Source: a virus. From it: a DNA stretch of 33,981 bases. The notes beneath the pieces are model-generated. The model did not search any database. It was not told the origin of the DNA and saw nothing but the letters and a program-made list of their open reading frames with translations. Both the position numbers and the translations under genes were made by a program. Below, piece by piece: positions 2,894-30,952 of the stretch. Numbering within the stretch: position 1 is the stretch's first letter; every line of letters begins with the position of its first letter. The stretch covers positions 1 through 33,981 of the IMG/VR virus record IMGVR_UViG_3300018080_000397; one strand, 5' to 3'.

Positions 2894-3149
2894 GGCCCTT
2901 CAGAAAGGGCCTATGAAAGTCGGGTGCGCCCAACGTTCACGCTCCGCAATGAGCGCTCGGAGAGACGACCCCTCATCAACCGGACGGTACAGGTCAGCCA
3001 TCCGGTTGATGAGCTCTTCTGGGAGGTGGGTTCGCACCCACTCCCAGAAAAGCCGCTCCGCTTCTCTTCGGACAGATTGGCGTTCGATCGAAGCGGGAGC
3101 TTCACCGACGGCTACGCCGGTGAAGCCGTCAAGCCATACGGCTTGACGG
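2894..3149 (-). repeat. Chain of inverted repeats in paralog A
   Basis: Five inverted repeats lie almost end to end. Arms 2894-2900 and 2905-2911 (7 bp) span the stop codon. Arms 2972-2984 and 3001-3013 form a perfect 13 bp. Arms 3017-3031 and 3036-3049 form 14 bp with one bulged G and a TCGC loop. Arms 3099-3107 and 3118-3126 form 9 bp. Arms 3126-3135 and 3140-3149 form 10 bp with a 4-base loop. The last two share a base and are alternatives at that point. This density is far above what I see by eye in the forward structural genes. Confidence 0.85.
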
Positions 3150-3193
3150 ACGAATTCCACCGCCCATTCCTGGGCGGGGGTGCCCTTTTTCAT
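2900..3193 (-). CDS. Small reverse-strand cassette protein, paralog A
   Basis: The start is ATG at 3193 because AAAGGAGG lies just upstream, and this aligns with the start of the neighbouring paralog (MKKGTPAQEW against MPKGVGTPEQRW). The 97-residue product is a small charged protein of unknown function. Its C-terminal half matches the protein at 3249-3530: AERLFW, then PV-EGS-LRAL-A, then RERWA, ending PTFIGPF in both. The coding region is packed with inverted repeats (2972-3013, 3017-3049, 3099-3126, 3126-3149), and a 7-bp hairpin spans the stop codon (2894-2911). A promoter-like CATAGAATAATGG lies directly upstream. It looks like a self-contained moron-type cassette inserted against the direction of the structural genes. 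Confidence 0.75.
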   Translation of the reverse strand: MKKGTPAQEWAVEFVRQAVWLDGFTGVAVGEAPASIERQSVRREAERLFWEWVRTHLPEELINRMADLYRPVDEGSSLRALIAERERWAHPTFIGPF

Positions 3194-3212
3194 TTGGCAC
3201 CTCCTTTCCATT

Positions 3213-3220
3213 ATTCTATG
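3213..3220 (-). promoter_or_regulatory. Promoter-like CATAGAAT box for the 3193 gene
   Basis: On the reverse strand this reads GGCATAGAATAATGGAAAGGAGG. The AGAATAATGGAAAGGAGG part is the same as upstream of the 4784 gene, so box and ribosome site look like one conserved leader. It is the weakest match to the TATAAG family. Confidence 0.4.
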
Positions 3221-3248
3221 CCAGAAAAAATATTTGAACTTTCAGCCC

Positions 3249-3530
3249 TTAGAAAGGGCCGATGAACGTGGGGTTTGCCCAACGTTCACGCTGGGCGAGA
3301 AGCGCTCGGAGAGCCGAACCTTCCGGGACTGGGCTGACTAGGGCAGCCATCTGTTCAGCCACCTCTTTCGGGAAGTGTTCGCAGACCCAATCCCAGAACA
3401 AGCGCTCGGCTTTTCGCTCGTTCGGGTTCTCCTCTCGATAGCAGCCGTCGGGAGCGGCATCCTGCCACGCTTTGGCGTGAGCAAAGTTTGCCGCCCACCG
3501 CTGTTCGGGGGTACCGACTCCTTTTGGCAT
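3249..3530 (-). CDS. Small reverse-strand cassette protein, paralog B
   Basis: This 93-residue protein is the tandem paralog of the one at 2900-3193. They share AERLFW-x-WV in the middle and the ending PTFIGPF. The N-terminal third differs more (MPKGVGTPEQRWAANFAHAK). An AAGGAG ribosome site and a GGTATAAG box precede the ATG. A 6-bp hairpin (3245-3250 with 3254-3259) spans the TAA stop, as in the paralog. Long inverted repeats are fewer here, although one near the 3' end (about 3263-3288) corresponds in position to one in paralog A. Function is unknown. Confidence 0.75.
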   Translation of the reverse strand: MPKGVGTPEQRWAANFAHAKAWQDAAPDGCYREENPNERKAERLFWDWVCEHFPKEVAEQMAALVSPVPEGSALRALLAQRERWANPTFIGPF

Positions 3531-3553
3531 TATTCAATTCTCCTTGCACCTTT

Positions 3554-3559
3554 CTTATA
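3554..3559 (-). promoter_or_regulatory. TATAAG box for paralog B
   Basis: The reverse strand reads GCGGTATAAGAAAGGTGC, about 20 bases before the ATG at 3530. No TTGACA-like -35 is seen at 16-18 bases upstream. Confidence 0.5.
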
Positions 3560-3633
3560 CCGCCCAGCTTCTCAATAATTTCGCCAATGGATAGGTAAGA
3601 GAGGAGGTACCAACCCCCTTCTCCAAGATCGGA

Positions 3634-3880
3634 ACTTCGGCTACCAGCCGAAGTCCCAACCCCTGCACGCCCTCACCGGACGGATGTCCGGCAAAGGCGG
3701 CACTAGATCTGCGCGGCGCAAACGGGGGCCTTCCTCTTGGAAGTCCCCGTCGATTTCGCAGGACGCGAAACCGACGGCCCCCGCCACGTAGACGTCGACG
3801 AGTTCGGTGTACCCGAACTTGTCGACGTCGTATACGAACTCGACGGTACCGGCTGGGGAACCCAGCTCGTCCTCGAGTTC
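3634..3880 (-). repeat. Inverted repeats in the 3641-4066 gene
   Basis: Arms 3634-3642 and 3646-3654 form a perfect 9 bp around the stop codon. Arms 3791-3807 and 3813-3829 form 9 bp and 7 bp separated by one G/T position, closing a 5-base loop. GAACTCGA near 3836 pairs with TCGAGTTC near 3873 and encloses a 6-bp GCTGGG/CCCAGC hairpin. A CCGGAC/GTCCGG pair also lies near 3676-3692. Confidence 0.75.
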
Positions 3881-4066
3881 ACGCGTGTACACGGTCACGT
3901 CGCCGTGCCGCGTACACCATAATCTGCCGCCCGCCCAGGCGTCCTCTACACGAGCGAACATCCACTCGCCGGAGAAGTTGTAGAACTCCCATTCCGGGCT
4001 GCGGACCCACGCCTCGTGGGGGACACCGAAAGCTGAGTTCAGCAGGTTGCGGAACTGTGTCTTCAC
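3641..4066 (-). CDS. Hypothetical reverse-strand cassette protein, 141 aa
   Basis: The start is GTG at 4066, preceded by GGAAGGGAG. The product begins MKTQFRNLLNSAFGVPHEAW and is aromatic and acidic (WEFYNFSGEWMFARVEDAW), probably a small beta-rich protein. No family is recognised. A 9-bp hairpin with a 3-base loop (3634-3654) contains the stop codon. The coding region holds further long repeats, the longest at 3791-3829. It is preceded by about 270 bases of structured, apparently noncoding leader whose promoter-like box lies at 4342-4347, so expression may be controlled through that RNA. Confidence 0.7.
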   Translation of the reverse strand: MKTQFRNLLNSAFGVPHEAWVRSPEWEFYNFSGEWMFARVEDAWAGGRLWCTRHGDVTVYTRELEDELGSPAGTVEFVYDVDKFGYTELVDVYVAGAVGFASCEIDGDFQEEGPRLRRADLVPPLPDIRPVRACRGWDFGW

Positions 4067-4340
4067 TGTTTTTACTCCCTTCCGGTTCCGAGTCTCCTCA
4101 GAACCACCGCCTCTTCCCTCTCATTGCGAGAGAGCTGAGGCCCGCTTCAATTTTCACAGACGAAGGCTGTTGGCCGTCACGTTGACCTCGTGACGCCACC
4201 TGGATTGGTGGACCTTCGCCTGAGAAGCAGTAGCCGATGACGTGGCCTATGCGTGCCCGTAACCGTGAGCAACGCGCCGCGACATTGCATCGCGGTCTGA
4301 GGGTGGGAAGTACACGAGTAGGTGCCCCGTGTACTAAAAT
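4067..4340 (-). ncRNA. Structured leader RNA upstream of the 4066 gene
   Basis: This 270-base stretch has no convincing gene. A reverse frame across it starts upstream of the promoter-like box and has no ribosome site. On the reverse strand the transcript would start near a perfect 8-bp hairpin (4309-4316 with 4328-4335). A 6-bp hairpin follows (4277-4282 with 4290-4295), then a three-way junction (4157-4222), then a nested stem (4096-4101 with 4135-4140, enclosing 4118-4122 with 4128-4132). It ends a few bases before the GGAAGGGAG ribosome site. It could be a cis-regulatory leader or a separate RNA. Confidence 0.5.
4157..4222 (-). ncRNA. Three-way-junction RNA element
   Basis: The closing stem is 10 bp, 4157-4166 with 4213-4222. 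Its only imperfect pair is G-U when read on the reverse strand but A-C on the forward strand, which supports a reverse-strand RNA. Inside are a perfect 7-bp hairpin with a 7-base loop (4175-4181, 4189-4195) and an abutting 5-bp hairpin (4196-4200, 4207-4211). The two inner stems could stack coaxially. It does not match any riboswitch class I can recognise. Confidence 0.5.
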
Positions 4341-4341
4341 A

Positions 4342-4347
4342 CTTATC
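4342..4347 (-). promoter_or_regulatory. GATAAG box for the structured leader
   Basis: The reverse strand reads TGTGATAAGTATTTTAG. The ATAAGTATTTT part is identical to the box at 9970-9975. The first leader hairpin begins about six bases downstream. Confidence 0.45.
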
Positions 4348-4390
4348 ACAGAAAATATTCTATTTTTTCACTTCATTACGCCGCTAAATT

Positions 4391-4513
4391 AAAAAAGCGC
4401 GGGAGAGCGTGTGCCCCAAGTCCTCCACGCTAAGTCCGAGCCCCGCCAATGGCGGAGCTCTTTCCAGGTGGCGCGCCGTGAGGCTTACTCATCTGCAGCT
4501 TTCCGTCTCGCGC
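4391..4513 (-). ncRNA. Candidate small RNA of about 120 nt
   Basis: No gene is found here. A TATAAG box (4516-4521) lies at one end and a run of six T on the reverse strand (4391-4396) at the other. The two ends can pair: 4397-4401 with 4509-4513, then after a 2-base bulge 4404-4406 with 4506-4508. An internal 10-bp hairpin with a 3-base loop (4438-4447 with 4451-4460) is complete on the reverse strand through one G-U pair but has a C-A mismatch on the forward strand. The exact 5' end is uncertain. A start 6-7 bases after the box would shorten the end-to-end stem. Confidence 0.4.
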
Positions 4514-4515
4514 TG

Positions 4516-4521
4516 CTTATA
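4516..4521 (-). promoter_or_regulatory. TATAAG box for the candidate small RNA
   Basis: The reverse strand reads TTGGTATAAGCAGCG. No gene start follows within 120 bases, and a T-run follows instead. Confidence 0.45.
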
Positions 4522-4595
4522 CCAAAAGGAGCACGGCTTTTTCACTATCGCGTATCGACGTAAAAGAGAGGTGCCCGAGCTGGGCGTGGGCGGGA

Positions 4596-4784
4596 TTAGT
4601 ACTTTCGGAGGGCCTCGGTGAGGTAGTGTCGATCCTCCTCACCGAGCTTCGCGATTTCCTCTTCTGTCAGGCAGTCGAGGAAATCGCGCAGTCCTTGACG
4701 GACGGCGCTAAAGGCGGGCCAGTCGCCATCCGTCTCTTCCAGAAGTCGCTCGTATGTCCGAACGACTTCGGCCAGATCGCACAT
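4596..4784 (-). CDS. Small acidic cassette protein, 62 aa
   Basis: The product begins MCDLAEVVRTYERLLEE and is an acidic, probably all-helical protein of unknown function. The leader is the clearest of the set: CGGTATAAGAATAATGG, then AAAGGAGG seven bases or fewer before the ATG. About three quarters of the gene lies inside four consecutive inverted repeats (4614-4646, 4650-4688, 4697-4734, 4742-4769), so the messenger should fold into a string of hairpins. A single-gene cassette is likely. Confidence 0.75.
   Translation of the reverse strand: MCDLAEVVRTYERLLEETDGDWPAFSAVRQGLRDFLDCLTEEEIAKLGEEDRHYLTEALRKY
4614..4769 (-). repeat. Four back-to-back inverted repeats covering a small gene
   Basis: Arms 4614-4623 and 4637-4646 form a perfect 10 bp. 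Arms 4650-4661 and 4677-4688 form a perfect 12 bp. Arms 4697-4707 and 4724-4734 form 11 positions, with one that pairs G-U on the reverse strand and mismatches on the forward strand. Arms 4742-4748 and 4763-4769 form 7 bp. Gaps between successive hairpins are only 3 to 8 bases. Confidence 0.85.
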
Positions 4785-4804
4785 AAAACCTCCTTTCCAT
4801 TATT

Positions 4805-4810
4805 CTTATA
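4805..4810 (-). promoter_or_regulatory. TATAAG box for the 62-aa gene
   Basis: The reverse strand reads TCGGTATAAGAATAATGG, followed at once by the AAAGGAGG ribosome site of the 4784 gene. No -35-like hexamer is at the expected distance. Confidence 0.55.
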
Positions 4811-4880
4811 CCGATTGCGGCACGAGAACTTTTGAACGATACCGAGCTAAGGAAAATGGCCGAGGAGGTTCGGCCGAGAA

Positions 4881-5231
4881 CTACTTGAAGTAGACCATGA
4901 TGCGCGGCGGGTAGTATCCCCAGTCGCAGAAATCCCTGCGAGATTTTCGTCCGCCGGGAACGCGGGTCGAAACCAGCTCCTCGCCGGCGTGGTGGGCAGC
5001 CACTTCAATGAGCTGCTCCAGCTCGACGCCGAGCTCGTAGGGCATGCTCATTTGGTCTTTGAAAACGATGGGGAACGTATGTTCCCAGCAGATGCCGTGA
5101 TCTGGGTGCTCCACCCGCTTGGCGGTGCCCGGCTCAATGGTCAGTCGGTCCTCGAGCAGCCGACTGACCTGAGCGAAGAGCTTGTTGAGCCACTCAGGCG
5201 AATGTCGAGACGACACGAACCCAATCCTCAT
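4881..5231 (-). CDS. Hypothetical reverse-strand protein, about 117 aa
   Basis: The product read from ATG at 5231 begins MRIGFVSSRHSPEWLNKLF. A downstream GTG at 5216 has a GAGG nine bases ahead and may be the true start. A TTG/ATG pair at 5276/5273 has no ribosome site. It overlaps the end of the upstream gene (5194), so the two are coupled. A hydrophobic-acidic helix (YELGVELEQLIEVAAHHAG) precedes a basic C-terminus (RVPGGRKSRRDF). Function is unknown. A 10-bp repeat (5139-5148 with 5160-5169), GGGAAC/GTTCCC (5071-5086) and GAGCTG/CAGCTC (5010-5024) lie inside the gene. A GGCCGA/TCGGCC hairpin (4858-4875) lies just beyond the stop. Confidence 0.65.
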   Translation of the reverse strand: MRIGFVSSRHSPEWLNKLFAQVSRLLEDRLTIEPGTAKRVEHPDHGICWEHTFPIVFKDQMSMPYELGVELEQLIEVAAHHAGEELVSTRVPGGRKSRRDFCDWGYYPPRIMVYFK

Positions 5232-5658
5232 CTTGGCAGTAGAAGTTGTGGATTCGCGCCGCTGTGCGGTCATCAAGCATGTCTAACTCAGGCACCTCGT
5301 CCACATTCGTCGGTAGCGGTAGCGCGGACCAGCCTGGCCGATCTGTCTTAAGCAGATCGTTTATTGCTGTCCGCGCGAAATGCTTCAACACCTTTACGGG
5401 CATGTCCAGCTTCTCCGCCACTCCCTTGAGAGGTGTCCACCGCTTTCGGCCCAGCGGATCTCCCTCAAAGGTCAAAGGCTCCCATTTCGCCCGCCCTCGA
5501 TATTGAGGGTCTCGAATTTCTGCAAACGCAGAAATGCCTGGCCCAAGTAGATAGGCCGCGCTGTTTGGGCCATCCAACAGGAGCAGCACATCGAGGTCGA
5601 CCAGCTCCTCCACCTCGCCGCTTTCCGTTTCCTTTATTTCGATGGCCGTGAGCCATCG
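5139..5658 (-). repeat. Inverted repeats across the 4881-5883 gene pair
   Basis: Arms 5139-5148 and 5160-5169 form a perfect 10 bp, and 5168-5173 with 5193-5198 form 6 bp. The 5322-5376 structure has 8 bp, a bulged C, 3 bp, then an inner 7-bp hairpin (5339-5345 with 5353-5359). Arms 5516-5523 and 5528-5535 form a perfect 8 bp with loop AAAC. Arms 5640-5646 and 5652-5658 form 7 bp with a 5-base loop. Confidence 0.75.
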
Positions 5659-5883
5659 GCATCCCGTGTAGCCTACGAATCGCTGATACGCTTTCTGCAA
5701 AAATTGTTGGCCCACAACCTGACTTCGCGAGCCCCGCCGCGTACGGGTCTCGGCGCCAGGTGTGTCCGTTGCCAGCACTACTGACGCAACGAACTCCAGG
5801 TCGAATTTCTGCAGGAATTCATCGATGACTTGCCTTGTCCAGCCCAACCTGAGCGCCGCGGCTGTTACCTGATCTTTGGTCAC
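5194..5883 (-). CDS. Hypothetical reverse-strand protein, 229 aa
   Basis: The start is GTG at 5883 with GGAAAGGAG six bases or so ahead. An out-of-frame ATG overlaps it and is stopped at once. The protein begins MTKDQVTAAALRLGWTRQVI. Its central region holds VDLDVLLLLDGPNSAAYLLG and a segment around FEGDPLGRKRWTPLKGV. No family is recognised. It is the first gene of a two-gene reverse unit with the 4881-5231 gene and diverges from the terminase across an 88-base gap. Several perfect hairpins (5322-5376, 5516-5535, 5640-5658) lie inside it. Confidence 0.7.
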   Translation of the reverse strand: MTKDQVTAAALRLGWTRQVIDEFLQKFDLEFVASVVLATDTPGAETRTRRGSRSQVVGQQFLQKAYQRFVGYTGCRWLTAIEIKETESGEVEELVDLDVLLLLDGPNSAAYLLGPGISAFAEIRDPQYRGRAKWEPLTFEGDPLGRKRWTPLKGVAEKLDMPVKVLKHFARTAINDLLKTDRPGWSALPLPTNVDEVPELDMLDDRTAARIHNFYCQDEDWVRVVSTFA

Positions 5884-5925: not shown

Positions 5926-5931
5926 CTTATA
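5926..5931 (-). promoter_or_regulatory. TATAAG box for the 5883 gene
   Basis: The reverse strand reads GCGTTATAAGATTGTCGG in the divergent gap ahead of the terminase, about 45 bases before the GTG start. Confidence 0.45.
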
Positions 5932-5971: not shown

Positions 5972-8900
5972 ATGTCTACGGATTGTTTCGGCGCTCATGA
6001 TACTGAGTTGGTTGATGAGATTGACCAGCTGCTCGCATACGAGGAATCCGAGCTGGATACGCTCAATGTCTGCCCGGTAGGATCGGCTACACCGCAGCGG
6101 GTGGAAATTCAGCCTTCGGAGTTCACCGAGTTCGCAATCAAGGTCCCTACAAATGAGGCAATCGTCCCCTTCAGTTTCAACGAACGCCGTTATCTGCGCA
6201 GCATTTATGACACGCCAGCAAAGCGTGTTCTGCTCAAAGCCGCGCGGCAAGTGGAAAAGTGTCTGTTGGCCTCGGATCGGGTCGTCACTCCCGATGGTCG
6301 TTGGATTACGATTGAGGATTTGCGGATCGGCGATCGAGTCGTCTCCCTCCACGCTCTTGACCCTGATGCGGAAGAGTGCGCTGTGCCTCATGGCGAGATT
6401 CGACCCTTCCGGACCAACAACCGATTTGAGCAGGACATCGTCGTCGACAAACGTTCGGTTGGGAAAAAGCGTGCCGTACGGTTGCGCACGAAAATGGGAT
6501 GCGTGCTCCATCTCAGTGAGGACACGCCTGTCCTCGGCGGTCGTGGTTGGTGCAGTGCTGCCGGTATGGGGAGGGGTGAGCCTGTTGCGACCATTCGCTC
6601 TCTCGGCGACGCCGCCGTGTTCGGAGAGGGTTACGGGAAGAGCCTCGAGTTCAGCTCAACAATTCCCGACGGCCTTTTTCTCGAGGCGACGTCCAGCGAG
6701 CTTGTCGCGTTCATCAAATCTCTCTGGCGACGCAGCGGAAGCGTGTATGGGCGAGGCGGGAAGCTCCGCTGCGCGCTGTATCTGCCATCACGACTGACTG
6801 CTGAGCGTGCTCGTTGGTTGCTGCTGAAGATCGGCATTCCTGCGCATTGTCGGCGTGGGGAGGGCGACGCGCATTCGGTCAGCGTGGGTGGAAAGGCCGC
6901 GCAGGCGTTTTTGGACATGATTGTGACGGGCGTCCCACCTGAGCCCAAATCGAGTGATGTGCTGTGGGATACGGTTGTCGACGTCGAGCCGTTGGGGCAG
7001 GAGGAGGTGTACCACCTCGAGACCGCCAAGAATCACAACTACGTCCATGAAGGTGCCGTGGTCCACAACTCCACCTTCATTGGCAACAAGATGATCACCT
7101 ACTGTGCCGTGGTACCCAACTTCAAAACGCTCTACGTCAGCGCCACCCAGCAGCAGGCGCAGGTGTTTTCATCCGATCGCATAAAAGACCCAATCGACCT
7201 TTCCCCCGAGCTCGCCTACTTGTTGGACAGCAAGCTGTCGCAAAACGTGCTCTTCAAACAGTTTCGTAACCGTTCGCAAATTCGCATCCGATACACGTAT
7301 CATTCCGCCGATCGCACACGCGGCATCAGCGCTGATCTCGTAACGATCGACGAGCTTCAGGATATTATCTACCACCACATTCCCATCATCGAACAGTGCG
7401 CTTCCCACTCGCAATGGAAGCTCTTTTGCGATGCCGGAACGCCAAAATCGTTGGACAACACGATCGAAGTGCTTTGGGCACAGTTCTCCACGCAAAACGA
7501 ATGGGTCGTTCCGTGTGGACGGCACGGTCTGCCAAAACAGCCAGGCACGTGGCACTGGAACGTGCTGGGCATGAAAAACATCGGCAAAAAGGGTCTGATA
7601 TGTGCAAAGTGCGGGCAGCCTATCGACCCTACCCATCCGTTGGCGACCTGGGCCTCGATGCAGCCGCGAACGGTGAATAATGCCAATCGAGTGACGATGG
7701 ATGGCTACCGCATCTCTCAGTTGATGGTGCCGTGGATTGATTGGGAAGGGGACATTCTCATGAACCTGGACCGTTACGATCTGCCGCAGATCAACAATGA
7801 GATGCTGGGTCTGTCCTCCGACTCTGGTATCCGTCCTCTCACTCAAAGGTCGGTACGGGTCTGCTGTCAGCCCGACATCCATCTTGGTGATTTTGAGCTC
7901 AACGCGTCTCGGTGTGTCGACGGAGTTTTCGCCGGCATCGATTGGGGCTGCCACGACAACCAAACGCGCATCCTGACAGATTCCGGATTCAAATATTTTC
8001 GTGATCTGACCGACGATGATCTGGTTGCGCAATTTGATAAAGACACGCGCCAGATGTCCTTCGTCCGTCCGCTCACGCGGACCGTTCGGGATTGGAATGG
8101 GCCGCTCTACCACATCACGGGTCGCGATGTGGACATGATGTTGACGGGCACGCACAGAATGCTTGTCCAGCCGGCTCGCCAGAAGGACTGGTGCGTGGAG
8201 TCCATGGAGGAGCTCGCCGATCGGCAGGAAGGTGGGAATATGCGCGGTTGGGTTGACTGGGAAGGTGAGGAGCTCACCACCTTCACCGTTCCCGGCATTC
8301 CGCCATGCCTCGGCGACGAAGGTTGCGAGCCTGCGCAGATGGGCGGGGATTTTTGGATAACAAGGCTGGGGACCCTTTTGTCGTCGGGGCTTCCTGCTCG
8401 AGGGGTCTACGGCAGACAGCTGCAACGGTGGTGGATCGACAACGTGGGCCCGACCAAGGATACCGAACGCATTCCCCGCCGCTTCCTCAACCTCTCGAAA
8501 AGGCAGCTGCGCATCTTGTTCAGCGCGATGATGGCTGGAAAAGGTGGGGTGCTTGGTGGATACATGTCCGCCTCAAAGGGACTGTGTGAGGATTTTCAGG
8601 AAGTGTGCCTTCGGCTTGGTTACACGGCCACCGTCGAGATGCACATGTCCTCTAACAGCGACGGGAAGGTCCACTACAAAACCAGCTGGTCACAGAAAAG
8701 AGATTTTCGTCTGAGCCGCGAACAGATCAAGAAGATTCCGTATCGAGGGCAGGTGTACTGCTGCGCGGTCCCTTCCGGCCTCATCGTTACCGAACGAAAT
8801 GGGCGCATCGCCTATCAGGGCAACACGGGAGAACGAGAGTCCTACACGGTCCTCACGTTGGGCGGCTACATGGGGAAGGGATTTCAGGTGTTCTACGTCC

Positions 8901-9415
8901 ATCGCTTTGTTGGTGAGGATCTGGAGCCCAGCAGACAACTCGATCGAATTGCACAGATTTGTGTGCTTGTCGGCGTCAAGCTCATCGGTGCCGACTACGG
9001 TGGGGGTTACGATCGAAACGACTGGATAATGAGAAACTTCGGTATTCACAAGCTGGCCAAGTATCAGTACGCCGGCAATCCGAAGTCCAAAGTCAAATGG
9101 GAGCCTCGGCTTGGCCGCTTCATTCTTCATCGCAGCGAAGTGATGAAGGACATCTTCAGCGCCATCAAGCGGCGCCAGATTGGGTTGCCCTGCTGGGAAG
9201 AGTTCTCGTCTCCGTACGCGATGGACATGTGCAACATCTTCGCCGAGTTTAGTAAACAGCTACGGATGACGCAGTACATGGTCAGCCCGGGCAAGTCGGA
9301 CGACACATTCCATTCCATCCTCTACTGCTTTTTCGCATCCATGCTTGTGCGGCCGCGTCCCGACATTCTCATCCCGCGCAGCGCCAACGATGTGAACTTC
9401 CATCGACATAACTAG
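5972..9415 (+). CDS. Terminase large subunit containing two inteins
   Basis: This is the packaging motor subunit: an ATPase that translocates DNA into the prohead and a nuclease that cuts it. The 1147-residue precursor carries two inteins of 270 and 292 residues, so the spliced enzyme would be 585 residues, normal for the family. The P-loop region reads AARQVEK, then after splicing STFIG. Walker B is LVTIDELQDI (D460, E461 in precursor numbering), followed by the coupling motif DAGTPKS. A zinc-like cluster C515/H518/C544/C547 follows. The RNase H-like nuclease has D657 in GIDWG, D1008 in GADYGGG and D1110/D1111 in GKSDDTF. The ATG has a GTGGTGGG-like ribosome site. Portal and small subunit are not adjacent, unlike in many phages. 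Confidence 0.96.
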   Translation: MSTDCFGAHDTELVDEIDQLLAYEESELDTLNVCPVGSATPQRVEIQPSEFTEFAIKVPTNEAIVPFSFNERRYLRSIYDTPAKRVLLKAARQVEKCLLASDRVVTPDGRWITIEDLRIGDRVVSLHALDPDAEECAVPHGEIRPFRTNNRFEQDIVVDKRSVGKKRAVRLRTKMGCVLHLSEDTPVLGGRGWCSAAGMGRGEPVATIRSLGDAAVFGEGYGKSLEFSSTIPDGLFLEATSSELVAFIKSLWRRSGSVYGRGGKLRCALYLPSRLTAERARWLLLKIGIPAHCRRGEGDAHSVSVGGKAAQAFLDMIVTGVPPEPKSSDVLWDTVVDVEPLGQEEVYHLETAKNHNYVHEGAVVHNSTFIGNKMITYCAVVPNFKTLYVSATQQQAQVFSSDRIKDPIDLSPELAYLLDSKLSQNVLFKQFRNRSQIRIRYTYHSADRTRGISADLVTIDELQDIIYHHIPIIEQCASHSQWKLFCDAGTPKSLDNTIEVLWAQFSTQNEWVVPCGRHGLPKQPGTWHWNVLGMKNIGKKGLICAKCGQPIDPTHPLATWASMQPRTVNNANRVTMDGYRISQLMVPWIDWEGDILMNLDRYDLPQINNEMLGLSSDSGIRPLTQRSVRVCCQPDIHLGDFELNASRCVDGVFAGIDWGCHDNQTRILTDSGFKYFRDLTDDDLVAQFDKDTRQMSFVRPLTRTVRDWNGPLYHITGRDVDMMLTGTHRMLVQPARQKDWCVESMEELADRQEGGNMRGWVDWEGEELTTFTVPGIPPCLGDEGCEPAQMGGDFWITRLGTLLSSGLPARGVYGRQLQRWWIDNVGPTKDTERIPRRFLNLSKRQLRILFSAMMAGKGGVLGGYMSASKGLCEDFQEVCLRLGYTATVEMHMSSNSDGKVHYKTSWSQKRDFRLSREQIKKIPYRGQVYCCAVPSGLIVTERNGRIAYQGNTGERESYTVLTLGGYMGKGFQVFYVHRFVGEDLEPSRQLDRIAQICVLVGVKLIGADYGGGYDRNDWIMRNFGIHKLAKYQYAGNPKSKVKWEPRLGRFILHRSEVMKDIFSAIKRRQIGLPCWEEFSSPYAMDMCNIFAEFSKQLRMTQYMVSPGKSDDTFHSILYCFFASMLVRPRPDILIPRSANDVNFHRHN
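6260..7069 (+). other. Intein 1 in the terminase P-loop
   Basis: Residues C97 to N366 of the precursor form an intein with Ser367 as the +1 residue. Block A is present (CLLASDRVVTPDGRWITIED), as are block F (VYHLETAKNHNYVHEG) and block G ending VVHN before S. It splits the ATPase motif between K96 and the following S-T. Block B is unusual: the expected T-x-x-H is replaced by S-E-D-T, so the histidine that assists the first acyl shift is missing. The middle resembles a LAGLIDADG domain, but its motif reads SLWRRSGSV (residues 250-258), with R253 and S255 where acidic residues are expected. The endonuclease is therefore probably inactive. Confidence 0.9.
7949..8824 (+). other. Intein 2 in the terminase nuclease motif
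   Basis: Residues C660 to N951 form a second intein, followed by Thr952. Block A is CHDNQTRILTDSGFKYFRDL. Block B keeps the T-x-x-H (LTGTH). The C-terminal blocks run from YCCAVPSGL to RIAYQGN, with Gly in place of the penultimate His, which is seen in other inteins ending GN. It interrupts the nuclease motif GIDWG-TG, right after a catalytic Asp. Two LAGLIDADG-like segments are visible, RLGTLLSSG (798-806) and SAMMAGKGGV, with S805 and K857 at the positions normally held by the acidic catalytic residues. Cleavage activity is probably lost. Confidence 0.9.
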
Positions 9416-9446: not shown

Positions 9447-9710
9447 AAGCGGCGCTAGCGCGCCGCTTGGTGGATTGCAGGGGGAGGGGGCGCCTTGGCT
9501 TCTGCCTTGGCGGCTCTTTTTTCGATCGCCTCGACGGCCGCCAGGGCGGCCGCCTCAGCGGCGTGGAGAAGCTCTTGCTTCTCCACTTGCTCGGAAAAAT
9601 CCAGCCGTCCCACCGCATGGTGGGGCCGGATTTTTCCGAGCGCCAACGCGTCGGTGTACAGGAGGACGTCCGCTCGGACGTCCTCCAGTGCTCGGGCGCC
9701 TATGTAGGCG
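9447..9710 (-). repeat. Chain of inverted repeats in the membrane-protein gene
   Basis: Arms 9447-9455 and 9460-9468 form a perfect 9 bp spanning the stop codon. Arms 9535-9542 and 9545-9552 form 8 bp around AG. Arms 9563-9572 and 9577-9586 form a perfect 10 bp. Arms 9589-9602 and 9628-9641 form a perfect 14 bp enclosing a 6-bp hairpin (9609-9614 with 9619-9624). Arms 9661-9672 and 9675-9686 form a perfect 12 bp. Arms 9697-9702 and 9705-9710 form 6 bp. Most lie in the C-terminal half of the gene. Confidence 0.88.
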
Positions 9711-9895
9711 ACTGTGAAGCCGCCTACAGCGCCCGCGCCGGCGCCGGTCGCGATCCAAAGCATCTGCCCGTTCCCGAGCAGATACCCGACCACGCCGCCG
9801 CCGGCGCCGCCCAGCAGCACTCCGACAACGATCTTGCCGGAATGCTGCACGAAAACCTCACCGGCCGAAGCGCGGTGAGGGTTGAGGTGTCCCAT
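9455..9895 (-). CDS. Small glycine-rich two-helix membrane protein
   Basis: The start is ATG at 9895, preceded by GGAAAGGAG. Upstream in-frame codons have no ribosome site. The 146-residue protein has two hydrophobic glycine-zipper segments at about residues 21-40 (VGVLLGGAGGGVVGYLL) and 45-66 (IATGAGAGAVGGFTVAYIG). A long Ala/Glu/Lys-rich helix follows, with a Pro-rich end. It should sit in the host membrane with a soluble C-terminal tail. Two helices and a charged tail would suit a holin-like or superinfection-type protein, but no family signature confirms that. The gene stands alone on the reverse strand with its own TATAAG box and belongs to the hairpin-chain class. Confidence 0.75.
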   Translation of the reverse strand: MGHLNPHRASAGEVFVQHSGKIVVGVLLGGAGGGVVGYLLGNGQMLWIATGAGAGAVGGFTVAYIGARALEDVRADVLLYTDALALGKIRPHHAVGRLDFSEQVEKQELLHAAEAAALAAVEAIEKRAAKAEAKAPPPPAIHQAAR

Positions 9896-9969
9896 TGTTC
9901 TCCTTTCCAGACTTCTTGCGCGCACCAGTACGCACAAGGACCCAGCGAATGGAACTCTGGGTCAAAATA

Positions 9970-9996: not shown

Positions 9997-10788
9997 TTAC
10001 CGTCGTTGACGGCGTTGTTTATGCTTTTTGCGGCCCTGCTGGATGTCGGGAAAATACGTTTCCTGTTCTGCGATCTCTTGCTTTACGAGTGCGTCAAACG
10101 CGTCGATGTTTGCTGCCGCCAGTATTTCCAGAAGTTTGCGGCTAGGCCCGAGCTGGGCGGCCTTCTCAATCATCAGAACGGCGACTGTCGATAGGTTCTT
10201 GCGGCCGACGTAGAGTAGGTCGCGCATATATTGGAGGTGGAGATCGGTCTTGAAGTCCTTCCGTTCGACGACGTACCGACTCATCTTCAGGCACAGCTCG
10301 TAGAATGGCTTCCAGGCATGGTCTACGGAAAGCAGCGTGTTCAGCTTGTCGATTTCAACTTCCGTGATTTTTGCGAAAATTTCACAATAGCTTAATATCC
10401 TCTTCTGCTCCCATGTGGTTTCTCCGAGGTCCTCGAGGAGGTTGTTGTAGAGCTGAAGTAGCTCAGTGTCCGGCATTGTGTGAAAGCGTGAGGCGGACAT
10501 ATTGTTCACTTCGTAGAGAAGATTCACCGCGTCCTGAAGACGTAAGACTGTCCGTTCCAGAAACAAAAGCCGACGAATGAGCTCGCCCGGTTTCATTTCG
10601 CCGGCAATGCGAAGCCGCTTGAGCTCGGCCACATCTTCCTGTCGAACATAGACGGTATCGCCCTCCATCTGACGCCGAACGAGACCTTCGTCACAGAGTC
10701 TGTGCACCTTCTCGACGGAACACCCCAATATCTCCGCGGCCTTGGAGGCTGTAATGAAACCTTGACTTCTTCCCATGGTAATCACCAT
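9997..10788 (-). CDS. Helix-turn-helix transcriptional regulator
   Basis: The N-terminal 55 residues form an excisionase/MerR-like helix-turn-helix: FITASKAAEILGCSVEKVHR followed by a wing ending VYVRQEDVAELK. The remaining 200 residues are helical, with a very basic C-terminus (GRKKHKQRRQRR). The protein should bind DNA and may control the diverging structural genes that start 58 bases away. Two starts are possible, ATG at 10788 and ATG at 10776, neither with a good ribosome site. A 5-bp inverted repeat (10775-10779 with 10784-10788) covers both and could be an autoregulatory site. A short hairpin (10000-10012) directly precedes the stop. Unlike the other reverse genes it has no chain of long repeats. 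Confidence 0.85.
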   Translation of the reverse strand: MVITMGRSQGFITASKAAEILGCSVEKVHRLCDEGLVRRQMEGDTVYVRQEDVAELKRLRIAGEMKPGELIRRLLFLERTVLRLQDAVNLLYEVNNMSASRFHTMPDTELLQLYNNLLEDLGETTWEQKRILSYCEIFAKITEVEIDKLNTLLSVDHAWKPFYELCLKMSRYVVERKDFKTDLHLQYMRDLLYVGRKNLSTVAVLMIEKAAQLGPSRKLLEILAAANIDAFDALVKQEIAEQETYFPDIQQGRKKHKQRRQRR

Positions 10789-17822: not shown

Positions 17823-18944
17823 ATGACGACTTCCGCATCAGCATTCAACATGCGGTTCCTCTCCAAGCTCGACGTGCCCGAAGGGAAGGAGAAGATCGCG
17901 CAGTACGGCGGCACGTACATTCGTGACCATCTGCGTGAAGTCTCCTTCTGGAGGCAGGTCATTCCGCCCGAGAACGTGACTCGGGCCGACTGCCAGCGCA
18001 GCACCAATCACGACACGTTGACCAAAATCGTCGACGTCGAGCCCGAGAGCCGCGCCGTCGCCATATCGTTTCGAGGGGAGCCGAAGGCCCGTCTCATTGA
18101 CGCCCCTCGTGCCGAGTGCGGTTTCTTCACCATCTCGTCCGAGAGGTTCGAGAAGTACGAGCAGGAGCTCTTGGCGTACGAGATGCCTCTCACCAAGGTG
18201 ATGGAAACCAACAGCGGCAAGGACATTCAGGAGATCGAAGATCGCGAAGCCACCATCCACATGGAGGCTGCCGTCCAAGCACTGCAGCAGGAGCAGAACG
18301 GTGGCGCCGTCACCACGCTCAACAAGAGTGCCATCGTGGCGGGGACGGTCGTCGAGTACTCCATTCGCAAGGGCGAGATGGCTCGTGTTGCTGCTGCAGA
18401 CACCAACTACGTTTGGCCGTTGCAGCGACCCGACCTGGTCAACCTGGCCAAGATCTTGGACGGCCGCTATCACCGGGCGCAGAAGTACCTCATCAATGAG
18501 GCAGACTTCGACGACATCACTCAATGGACGGTCGAAGACTGGGGCGACAAGGTCCAGTCCGAAACCGGTGTTGAGGGGTACAAGTACTCGACCCTTCTGG
18601 GTCGGGCCTTCGTGCGGACCATCAAGAGCGACATCTTGCGGCGCGGGAATGTGTTCGTGTTCACGGCACCCGAGTTCATCGGGAAGTTCTACATCCTGAA
18701 CAACACGAAGTTCTACGCCGACAAGGTATTCAACAAAATCACGTGGCAGAGCTGGGAAGACATCGCCATGATGATCGTGAACGTCAGCTCGATCGGAAAG
18801 ATTGAACTGTACTCCGGCGATGCCACCACGAACGATGCCGACGGTATTCGGTCGGACGTGTTCCCGAAGGACCAGGCTGATCTCGGCGTGGTGAACAACC
18901 GTGTCGATTCCGGCCTCGTGTTCCCGACAGTAAAGGTGTACTAG
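17823..18944 (+). CDS. Major capsid protein
   Basis: The 373-residue protein is the likely HK97-fold shell subunit. It follows the protease, scaffold-like and decoration genes, and ends at a strong terminator. The sequence fits the fold: an N-terminal helix region (YGGTYIRDHLREVSFWRQVI), an acidic E-loop-like region, a long helix (EIEDREATIHMEAAVQALQQ) and C-terminal strands with IKSDILRRGNVFVFTAPEF. KEKIAQ at residues 22-27 is a possible processing site near the N-terminus. GAAAGGGGAGA precedes the ATG. Confidence 0.85.
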   Translation: MTTSASAFNMRFLSKLDVPEGKEKIAQYGGTYIRDHLREVSFWRQVIPPENVTRADCQRSTNHDTLTKIVDVEPESRAVAISFRGEPKARLIDAPRAECGFFTISSERFEKYEQELLAYEMPLTKVMETNSGKDIQEIEDREATIHMEAAVQALQQEQNGGAVTTLNKSAIVAGTVVEYSIRKGEMARVAAADTNYVWPLQRPDLVNLAKILDGRYHRAQKYLINEADFDDITQWTVEDWGDKVQSETGVEGYKYSTLLGRAFVRTIKSDILRRGNVFVFTAPEFIGKFYILNNTKFYADKVFNKITWQSWEDIAMMIVNVSSIGKIELYSGDATTNDADGIRSDVFPKDQADLGVVNNRVDSGLVFPTVKVY

Positions 18945-19863: not shown

Positions 19864-20391
19864 ATGACTGCCCTCCAAAATCTGGATAATCCGCATGTAC
19901 CAGGCGCCTCCCCCACATTCAATCAGTTTGTGGCGGGTGTGCGTCTGTACATGCGGGATTATCCGGAACTGAACCGTCTCGTTGCTGGTGAGGAATCGAG
20001 CGGTCGGATGATTGCGTTTGCAGTTTTGGAGGCTCTTTCAGATTTCACCGCTCACCCGCCAAATCTTGGTGTGTTCTCCTTCGAGTATTTTTTGGCGAGA
20101 GGATGGACGCACCATTTGCGGATCGGGACGATCTGCAGACTTCTTGAGATGGTCGGTATTCTGCAAACGAGAAATCATCTGCCATTTTCGGATGGCGGAT
20201 TGAATGTCGCCGTTTCAGACAAAACACCATTGCTGCAAAGTTGGATTCAGCTTTTTGAGCGGCGGTGGGAAACGTGGAAAGAGCGAACAAAAATATCCGA
20301 GAACATTGCTCGCTGTATGGGAACGGGCGGTGAGGGTCTCGCGAGCGAGTATTTTGCCATTCACGGCTACTTTTCGCGGGCATATTGGTAG
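19864..20391 (+). CDS. Putative neck or connector protein, 175 aa
   Basis: The protein begins MTALQNLDNPHVPGASPTFN and is mostly helical in the middle (FNQFVAGVRLYMRDYPELNR). Several aromatic segments follow (FSFEYFLARGWTHHLRIG). It starts one base after the previous stop. No tag is present. The position between capsid and tail genes suits a connector or neck protein. No motif allows a firmer name. Confidence 0.65.
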   Translation: MTALQNLDNPHVPGASPTFNQFVAGVRLYMRDYPELNRLVAGEESSGRMIAFAVLEALSDFTAHPPNLGVFSFEYFLARGWTHHLRIGTICRLLEMVGILQTRNHLPFSDGGLNVAVSDKTPLLQSWIQLFERRWETWKERTKISENIARCMGTGGEGLASEYFAIHGYFSRAYW

Positions 20392-30108: not shown

Positions 30109-30399
30109 TCATTCGGTATGTCGATCCAGGTTGGCAAAAAACGTGAGCTCCAACTGATCTCGCATGACTTCGTGCTTCCATACCGTAGCATCATTGGAAT
30201 CGCGAGGCAGCATTTGAAGATCAGTTACGTGCCGTCTGAATAGCACGTTCAGTACGTCCGCTGGTCTGGCTTTGACACCGTAAAGATAGTGTATACGGCC
30301 GCACTCCTTGAGGAGCAACTCGTACTCCTCCAGGGTTGGCTTGACGGAAAGGATGGGTGTGTCATAAAACACATGATGGTCCGCCCTAGTGATCTTCAT
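30109..30399 (-). CDS. Hypothetical reverse-strand protein, 96 aa
   Basis: The start is ATG at 30399, with GGGAG nine bases upstream. It overlaps the end of the upstream gene by 14 bases. It begins MKITRADHHVFYDTPILSVK. The rest is mixed alpha/beta (EEYELLLKECGRIHYLYGVK). No family is recognised. Coupling to both neighbours makes a three-gene unit with the HExxH protein at 30386-30952. Confidence 0.7.
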   Translation of the reverse strand: MKITRADHHVFYDTPILSVKPTLEEYELLLKECGRIHYLYGVKARPADVLNVLFRRHVTDLQMLPRDSNDATVWKHEVMRDQLELTFFANLDRHTE

Positions 30400-30952
30400 G
30401 GTGCGCGCTCCCTGCCAAACGTACATGTTCCATCAGACGTTGCCAATCTGCGTACAGATAGTAGACTTTTGCCGCTTCAGGATGGTGTCGGTTCGTTTCA
30501 ACTTCATGCAGGCGCTTGGCGAGCTCGTTCACGGCGTCGCTGTAACGTATCCCGTACCCTTCAAGCATACGTGCCTTGATTTTGATATATGCATTTGAGC
30601 GACAGCGCGTAAAGCACATCATTTCGGTCTGTATGCATACGGATTCGTAGTACAACCGCCACTTTTTGCTAAGAAGGTATCTCAGCGCGTACGTGGTGGA
30701 CCAAAACACGACGTGAGTGAGCTCGTGAAGGACGAGCGGTGAGGGCTCGGTCGCGTAATTCCAGCGAGGATGGGCGTAGATTCGGTTGCCGATGGTTGTA
30801 ACGTAGTCCGTGATGAAATTTCTGATGTCGCAGATTTTGAGACGGTTCCCTACGGCAATGAGCAGCGCCACAAGTTTCATGAGCGGTGCCGTTGCCTTGT
30901 CTTTGAAAACAACTTTGTGCATCTCGGAGCAAAAATGGTTAAGGAAAGTCAT
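30386..30952 (-). CDS. Putative zinc metallopeptidase-like protein (HELTH)
   Basis: The 188-residue protein contains LVLHELTHVVFW. H76, E77 and H80 form the HExxH zinc and catalytic motif of metallopeptidases. E103 in LYYESVCIQTEM is placed where a gluzincin-type third ligand could be. IGNRIYAHPRW just before the motif suggests an active-site strand. There is no signal peptide, so it would act in the host cytoplasm or be packaged. The target is unknown. AGGAG lies six bases before the ATG. It leads a coupled unit with two small unknown proteins. Confidence 0.7.
   Translation of the reverse strand: MTFLNHFCSEMHKVVFKDKATAPLMKLVALLIAVGNRLKICDIRNFITDYVTTIGNRIYAHPRWNYATEPSPLVLHELTHVVFWSTTYALRYLLSKKWRLYYESVCIQTEMMCFTRCRSNAYIKIKARMLEGYGIRYSDAVNELAKRLHEVETNRHHPEAAKVYYLYADWQRLMEHVRLAGSAHHEDH

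What the first reader, a model, noticed from the sequence alone, without database searches (positions are those of the whole stretch)
2894..5658. Reverse-strand cassette genes built from chains of long inverted repeats
In the 2.8-9 kb-free island left of the terminase, coding sequences on the minus strand are made largely of consecutive hairpins. The best case is the 62-codon gene at 4596-4784: perfect 10-bp and 12-bp stems (4614-4646, 4650-4688), an 11-position stem with one G-U on the minus strand (4697-4734) and a 7-bp stem (4742-4769), separated by 3-8 bases. Others are 2972-3013 (13 bp), 3017-3049 (14 bp with one bulge), 3126-3149 (10 bp), 3791-3829 (16 paired positions), 5139-5169 (10 bp) and 5322-5376. 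Random coding DNA should not contain these in series. The transcripts would be near-continuous hairpin strings, possibly for RNA stability, translation control, or blocking antisense transcription of the opposite-facing structural operon. I know of no described phage system with this property.
Basis: partly seen in the sequence, partly recalled or inferred. Interest (0 to 1): 0.85.

Follow-up and report, generated by a model that had tools for sequence, protein, structure and literature searches.

The report
Phage genes folded into hairpin strings
Several small genes on one strand of an uncultured phage genome are written with codons that make their messenger RNAs fold into chains of tight hairpins, far beyond chance and beyond nearly all of about 1,400 genes from related phages, which suggests that RNA shape itself is under selection in this virus.

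Summary
They beat synonymous-codon shuffles (z about -6 to -11), dinucleotide shuffles and combined codon-plus-dinucleotide shuffles (z -4.6 to -8.5). By hairpin excess they rank 1, 2, 3 and 6 of 1,471 predicted genes from this phage and its relatives. The signal is mostly codon choice, is stronger on the coding strand (7 of 7 genes), and the hairpins have the codon register expected of codon-constrained pairing. That points to selection on the mRNA rather than to repeat insertion or random-register inverted duplication. It is not a rule of minus-strand genes: the minus-strand HTH gene 9997-10788 shows none (z +1.9), a paralog shows little, and orthologs in relatives are nearly ordinary. Milder coding-strand folding is family-wide in capsid genes. 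Helices turn over between relatives, so no particular structure is kept. Minus-strand genes also tend to have their own promoter-like motif, TATAAG (12 of 109 against 0 of 723 plus-strand genes). The function is inferred: most likely protection or throttling of short, separately promoted mRNAs. Antisense blocking is poorly supported. Verdict: a strong outlier of a known kind.

The parts
2900..3211 (-). g1, 103-aa orphan gene with consecutive hairpins at 2972-3013, 3013-3053, 3099-3126, 3126-3149 and 3160-3177; paralog of g2; SD GGAAAGGAGGT
   Evidence: synonymous-shuffle z -7.7, codon+dinucleotide shuffle z -4.8; rank 3 of 1471 genes by hairpin excess
3249..3530 (-). g2, 93-aa paralog of g1 (50 identical residues), only weakly structured; TATAAG motif upstream at 3559
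   Evidence: paralog alignment with third-position-biased substitutions 31/25/47 shows both are coding; z -1.9
3641..4066 (-). g3, 141-aa orphan gene with hairpins at 3668-3699, 3725-3748, 3747-3777, 3791-3829 and 3885-3917
   Evidence: z -6.2, -4.7 with dinucleotides kept; rank 6 of 1471
4596..4784 (-). g4, 62-aa orphan gene made of four hairpins (4614-4646, 4650-4688, 4697-4734, 4742-4769)
   Evidence: z -9.7; -97.3 kcal/mol against -62.4 +/- 4.1 in dinucleotide shuffles; rank 1 of 1471; 73% of bases in hairpins
4881..5276 (-). g5, gene with moderate structure (hairpin 5139-5169); ortholog in relative L126
   Evidence: z -2.8; ortholog 33% over 106 aa in L126 with z -1.3
5194..5883 (-). g6, conserved minus-strand gene next to the terminase, moderate structure; TATAAG motif upstream at 5931
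   Evidence: z -4.6; orthologs in L111, L112, L126 with z -2.5 to -3.4; hairpin 5423-5471 not conserved
9455..9895 (-). g7, 146-aa glycine-rich probable membrane protein; near-continuous hairpin chain 9502-9880, the strongest case
   Evidence: z -11.3; -280.8 kcal/mol against -202.5 +/- 6.2 in dinucleotide shuffles; rank 2 of 1471
9589..9641 (-). longest hairpin inside g7: 18 paired positions plus an inner stem, pairing in codon register
4788..4812 (-). promoter-like GGTATAAG and the shared 19-nt leader AGAATAATGGAAAGGAGGT of g4 (identical leader at 3199-3217 for g1)
   Evidence: exact 19-nt repeat; TATAAG upstream of minus-strand genes family-wide 12/109 against 0/723 plus-strand genes
4067..4521 (-). 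about 450-nt leader or candidate non-coding RNA between a TATAAG motif (4521) and g3, locally structured
   Evidence: z -5.7 at 4051-4200 on the minus strand; no Rfam match at gathering score
9997..10788 (-). HTH_17 gene, the negative control: minus strand, same neighbourhood, no hairpin enrichment
   Evidence: z +1.9; orthologs across the family

Best explanation
Codon choice, and to a lesser degree amino-acid sequence, in several small, separately promoted minus-strand genes has been shaped so that the coding mRNA folds into a string of local hairpins. No particular structure matters; what is selected is general foldedness of the transcript body, with the start region less paired than the body. 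The likely benefit is that these short mRNAs resist single-strand-specific endonucleases, or other RNA-targeting attack, or are translated slowly and at a set level. Shown: the enrichment, its codon basis, the coding-strand bias, the helix turnover in a related family gene, and the separate promoter-like motif. Inferred: that selection on the RNA caused it, and what it does. The phage family shows a mild version in capsid genes; this lineage carries it to an extreme in its accessory genes.
For: Synonymous, dinucleotide and combined shuffles all rejected. Excess from codon choice is -0.10 to -0.20 kcal/mol per base in g1, g3, g4 and g7, against mostly -0.03 to -0.05 in capsid genes of relatives and means of -0.012 and -0.006 in phages lambda and D3, whose lowest gene z-scores are -4.5 and -3.3. 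The coding strand is more structured than its complement in 7 of 7 cassettes, on average in capsid genes (mean z -4.4 against -2.7, 31 sequences) and in the gene before the capsid gene (-3.0 against -1.6, 73 sequences). G-T outnumbers A-C in stems 28 to 10, with 362 to 265 in shuffles. Codon register of the hairpins (13 of 19) equals that of codon-constrained shuffles (68%) and differs from random register (p 0.002). In homologs of the gene before the capsid gene, shared helices fall to 19% at 82% DNA identity while z stays negative. Start regions are less paired than bodies in all seven genes. Structured ORFs in E. coli are translated less efficiently, predicted-structure rho -0.52 (PMC5318159).
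Against: No homologs of g1-g4 were found, so compensatory change cannot be tested where the effect is strongest. The g7 counterparts in relatives are nearly unstructured, so the structure cannot be essential to that gene. g2, the paralog of g1, is barely structured. The G-T excess is modest against the shuffle ratio. The start region is clearly more open than in synonymous shuffles only in some genes, and g1 and g3 are slightly more closed. No expression data exist; the structures are predictions for the free RNA.
Confidence: 0.5

Rival explanations
1. Mutational origin: template switching at small inverted repeats (quasi-palindrome correction) repeatedly made perfect inverted copies inside weakly constrained orphan genes, and the hairpins have no function.
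For: Most affected genes are orphans and lineage-specific. Amino-acid sequences also carry more in-register complementary runs than permuted proteins (z 0.8 to 3.0 in seven cassettes, about 0 or below in five controls), as inverted copying would give. Many stems are perfect.
Against: Such copies should fall in random codon register, but 13 of 19 are in register 2, exactly the codon-constrained background, although growth from pre-existing quasi-palindromes could inherit that bias. DNA-level copying predicts equal coding and complementary strands, yet the coding strand is more structured in 7 of 7 genes. A milder version appears in conserved capsid genes.
Confidence: 0.2
2. ORF-wide structure as a translation dimmer specifically: these mRNAs are made from their own promoter but must give little protein, for example because the small proteins are harmful in quantity.
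For: In E. coli ORF structure correlates negatively with translation efficiency (PMC5318159). Cassettes have strong Shine-Dalgarno sequences and a promoter-like motif of their own, so a brake in the body is conceivable; g7 looks like a small membrane protein.
Against: Capsid genes, which must be translated strongly, carry the same sign of folding excess.
Confidence: 0.2
3. Hairpins keep the cassette mRNAs from pairing with antisense read-through RNA of the opposite structural operon.
For: The cassettes are transcribed against a long plus-strand operon; self-folding would slow hybridisation (inference).
Against: Minus-strand genes 9997-10788 and 30386-30952 have z +1.9 and -0.1; relatives' minus-strand genes have no higher hairpin excess than plus-strand ones (5.3 against 5.8).
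Confidence: 0.05
4. The stretches are structured non-coding RNAs and the reading frames are incidental.
For: The folding of g7 (-0.64 kcal/mol per base) is strikingly strong for a coding sequence.
Against: g1 and g2 are paralogous proteins with substitutions concentrated at third positions (31/25/47); strong ribosome-binding sites; positional counterparts of g7 and orthologs of g5 and g6 are protein genes; no Rfam family.
Confidence: 0.05

Closest known systems
Selection on local mRNA folding strength in coding sequences (delta-LFE; PMC7063772)
   Same: Codon-driven folding stronger than codon shuffles in the gene body, weaker at the start; [quoted passage not shown]
   Different: Here single short genes carry -0.10 to -0.20 kcal/mol per base, about three to five times the capsid genes of the same family, as discrete hairpin strings in poorly conserved accessory genes.
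Genome-scale ordered RNA structure (GORS) of RNA viruses (PMC3950689, PMC7642675)
   Same: Many local hairpins spread through coding RNA rather than one conserved element.
   Different: This is a double-stranded DNA tailed phage; the effect is confined to certain genes' transcripts and cannot serve functions of an RNA genome.
ORF-centric mRNA structure in E. coli operons (Burkhardt et al. 2017, PMC5318159)
   Same: Degree of structure is set ORF by ORF and differs between neighbours, with a more open start region.
   Different: Their link to translation efficiency is measured; here nothing is measured and the predicted structure is more extreme.
Quasi-palindromes made by template switching (from general knowledge)
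   Same: Near-perfect inverted repeats with short loops.
   Different: Register, strand asymmetry and the family-wide mild version fit RNA-level selection better.

Membership tests
Selection on local mRNA folding (delta-LFE) | Coding sequence folds more strongly than shuffles that keep protein and codon usage | tested here: met
   z -6 to -11 in g1, g3, g4, g7, also with dinucleotides kept
Selection on local mRNA folding (delta-LFE) | Signal on the transcript strand rather than DNA-symmetric | tested here: met
   coding strand stronger in 7/7 cassettes and on average in 31 capsid genes
Selection on local mRNA folding (delta-LFE) | Relaxed structure at the start codon | tested here: inconclusive
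   start less paired than body in all seven genes, but relative to shuffles more open in some and slightly more closed in g1 and g3
Selection on local mRNA folding (delta-LFE) | Stronger in highly expressed genes | not testable with these tools
   no expression data for this uncultured phage
Genome-scale ordered RNA structure (GORS) | RNA genome structured throughout its length | tested here: not met
   DNA phage; terminase, left forward genes and 31-34 kb show mean window z near 0
Conserved structured RNA family (Rfam) | Match to a covariance model | tested here: not met
   no gathering-score match; best sub-threshold hit E 0.57
Conserved structured RNA family (Rfam) | Helices conserved among homologs | tested here: inconclusive
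   not conserved where testable: helix overlap 53% at 90% identity and 19% at 82% in the gene before the capsid gene, g6 hairpin not conserved; g1-g4 have no homologs to test
Palindromic repeat elements inside genes (REP/RPE type) | Same palindromic sequence repeated at several places | tested here: not met
   no hairpin matches another place in the window or relatives beyond single 14-16-base hits
Template-switch quasi-palindromes | Random codon register and strand symmetry | tested here: not met
   register 13/19 as in codon-constrained shuffles (p 0.002 against random); 7/7 coding-strand bias

The most novel reading that the evidence does not exclude
This phage lineage armours the transcripts of a dedicated minus-strand gene set, many with their own TATAAG-type promoter, by rewriting codons and partly amino acids into continuous hairpin strings, as a general defence against RNA-targeting host systems or RNA decay. 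This would be a DNA-phage counterpart of ordered RNA structure in RNA viruses.
Probability: 0.2. Interest if true: 0.85.

Novelty: new variant of a known kind. Interest (0 to 1): 0.55.

Why it matters
If RNA shape is what is selected, this gives natural genes at the extreme of codon-driven mRNA structure in a DNA virus, hence a direct way to ask what ORF-wide structure does: lifetime, translation rate, or escape from RNA-targeting immunity. It also shows a milder family-wide version in a large uncultured phage group and a promoter-like motif that marks its minus-strand genes, both of which can be tested in other members.

Tried and rejected
Rfam and tRNA/tmRNA searches found nothing. Pfam and PHROGs gave no family for the cassette proteins. 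Terminase (intein-rich and C-terminal), g7, g1/g2 alignment, g3 and g4 queries found no relatives in viral contigs; protein searches of g1 and g3 against phages and g2 against plasmids found none. Comparing synonymous-shuffle energies with codon-permuted energies was meant to separate amino-acid from codon effects but is insensitive to complementary amino acids, so the run statistic was added; it shows a modest amino-acid contribution. Repeat-element insertion was rejected. Antisense shielding was rejected because other minus-strand genes are unstructured. Fixability of mismatches points towards selection but the numbers are too small to weigh. GGTATAAG with one mismatch is not enriched by raw count in the window; only the placement of TATAAG upstream of minus-strand genes is striking.
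Full report
WHAT THE WINDOW IS. The 33,981-base window is a whole virus record of the viral collection. The terminase matches PHROG 675 and carries intein-like insertions; the capsid gene 17823-18944 is distantly related (26% identity) to that of Salmonella phage Arash, a 180-kb myovirus with RNA polymerase subunits in its particles (PMC10585845). In IMG/VR 215 stretches encode a relative of the capsid protein; the 80 kept are roughly 60-70% identical and include contigs of up to 195 kb. So this is a fragment of a large uncultured phage group.

THE OBSERVATION. Seven minus-strand genes were examined: g1 2900-3211, g2 3249-3530, g3 3641-4066, g4 4596-4784, g5 4881-5276, g6 5194-5883, g7 9455-9895. 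Together they hold 19 hairpins of score 9 or more against 2.4 per synonymous shuffle. Folding z-scores against shuffles that keep protein and codon counts are -7.7, -1.9, -6.2, -9.7, -2.8, -4.6 and -10.7 (g7 there taken as 9455-9937); with dinucleotides kept as well they are -4.8, -1.0, -4.7, -4.6, -3.0, -3.9 and -8.5. Dinucleotide shuffles alone give z -8.5 for g4 and -12.6 for g7. Mean z per 150-base window on the minus strand is -3.2 in the island and -7.1 over g7, and close to 0 in the terminase and left forward genes.

CONTROLS. Lambda (46 genes) has mean z -0.86 and minimum -4.5; Pseudomonas phage D3 (64 genes) has mean -0.43 and minimum -3.3. Among 1,471 predicted genes of this phage and its relatives, g4, g7, g1 and g3 rank 1, 2, 3 and 6 by hairpin excess over synonymous shuffles (the gene calling was a simple codon-score method). 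Being on the minus strand is not enough: 9997-10788 has z +1.9 and 30386-30952 has -0.1, and relatives' minus-strand genes do not exceed their plus-strand genes. Forward genes in this window are mostly 0 to -4, with one exception, 19864-20391, at -6.9.

CODING OR NOT. g1 and g2 are paralogs with 50 identical residues and differences of 31, 25 and 47 at codon positions 1, 2 and 3. Good ribosome-binding sites precede them, and g1 and g4 share an exact 19-base leader. g5 and g6 have orthologs in L126, and g7 has minus-strand counterparts of the same general type in the same gap between the terminase and HTH genes of L015, L016 and L058. The frames are genes.

RNA LEVEL OR DNA LEVEL. The coding strand folds more strongly than its complement in all seven genes, on average in capsid genes (mean z -4.4 against -2.7) and in 73 homologs of the gene before the capsid gene (-3.0 against -1.6). 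G-T pairs outnumber A-C in stems 28 to 10, although shuffles already lean that way at 362 to 265. Most of the excess comes from codon choice, with a smaller contribution from amino-acid order seen as in-register complementary runs. Hairpins fall in the codon register that codon-constrained shuffles show (68%) and not in random register (p 0.002). These results favour selection on the transcript over inverted copying, without excluding the latter.

RELATIVES. g1 to g4 have no detectable relatives. Orthologs of g5 and g6 have z -1.3 to -3.4, and the g7 counterparts in L015, L016 and L058 -1.4 to -4.5. In the gene before the capsid gene, homologs keep negative z while shared helices fall to 53% at 90% DNA identity and 19% at 82%. 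General foldedness seems to be what is kept there, not any particular structure.

PROMOTER CLASS. TATAAG lies within 100 bases upstream of 12 of 109 minus-strand genes of relatives and 0 of 723 plus-strand genes, never on the opposite strand of the minus-strand ones; in this window 4 of 11 against 0 of 24. It precedes g2, g4, g6 and, at about 80 bases, g7, and the g6 ortholog of L126. The minus-strand genes therefore look separately transcribed. Timing is unknown.

MECHANISM. The best-supported account is selection on the RNA for a folded body, giving resistance to decay or a set translation rate. E. coli data tie ORF structure to lower translation efficiency (PMC5318159) and comparative work finds folding selection across life, reported as stronger in highly expressed genes (PMC7063772). 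Which of these applies here cannot be decided from sequence. The start region is less paired than the body in all seven genes, but not always more open than in shuffles.

VERDICT. The finding is real and unusual in degree, ordinary in kind. No step in this work was of the kind that had to be referred.

Noticed in passing
window minus strand 3559, 4521, 4810, 5931, 9975, 29786; relatives L003-L082: TATAAG (often GGTATAAGA) sits upstream of minus-strand genes family-wide (12/109) and of no plus-strand gene (0/723): a candidate phage promoter for a separate gene class.
   Followed up: partly
window 5972-9415: The terminase large subunit carries two intein-like insertions (about 6290-7072 and 7945-8826, the second with a LAGLIDADG-type match); the relatives L111 and L112 have uninterrupted genes.
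   Followed up: no
window 4067-4521, minus strand: About 450 bases with a TATAAG motif at one end, local folding z -5.7 and no convincing reading frame: a long leader of g3 or a non-coding RNA.
   Followed up: partly
window 19864-20391, plus strand: A forward gene of unknown function with coding-strand folding z -6.9 (complement -2.9), without long perfect stems.
   Followed up: no
L006 9497-9943, L003 1273-1719 and homologs: The gene just before the major capsid gene shows coding-strand folding in nearly all of 73 relatives, with rapid helix turnover.
   Followed up: yes
L128, L129, L130: Capsid relatives lie in contigs binned as Deltaproteobacteria, an uncultured bacterium and Methanoregulaceae, which may be binning errors or host hints.
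   Followed up: no
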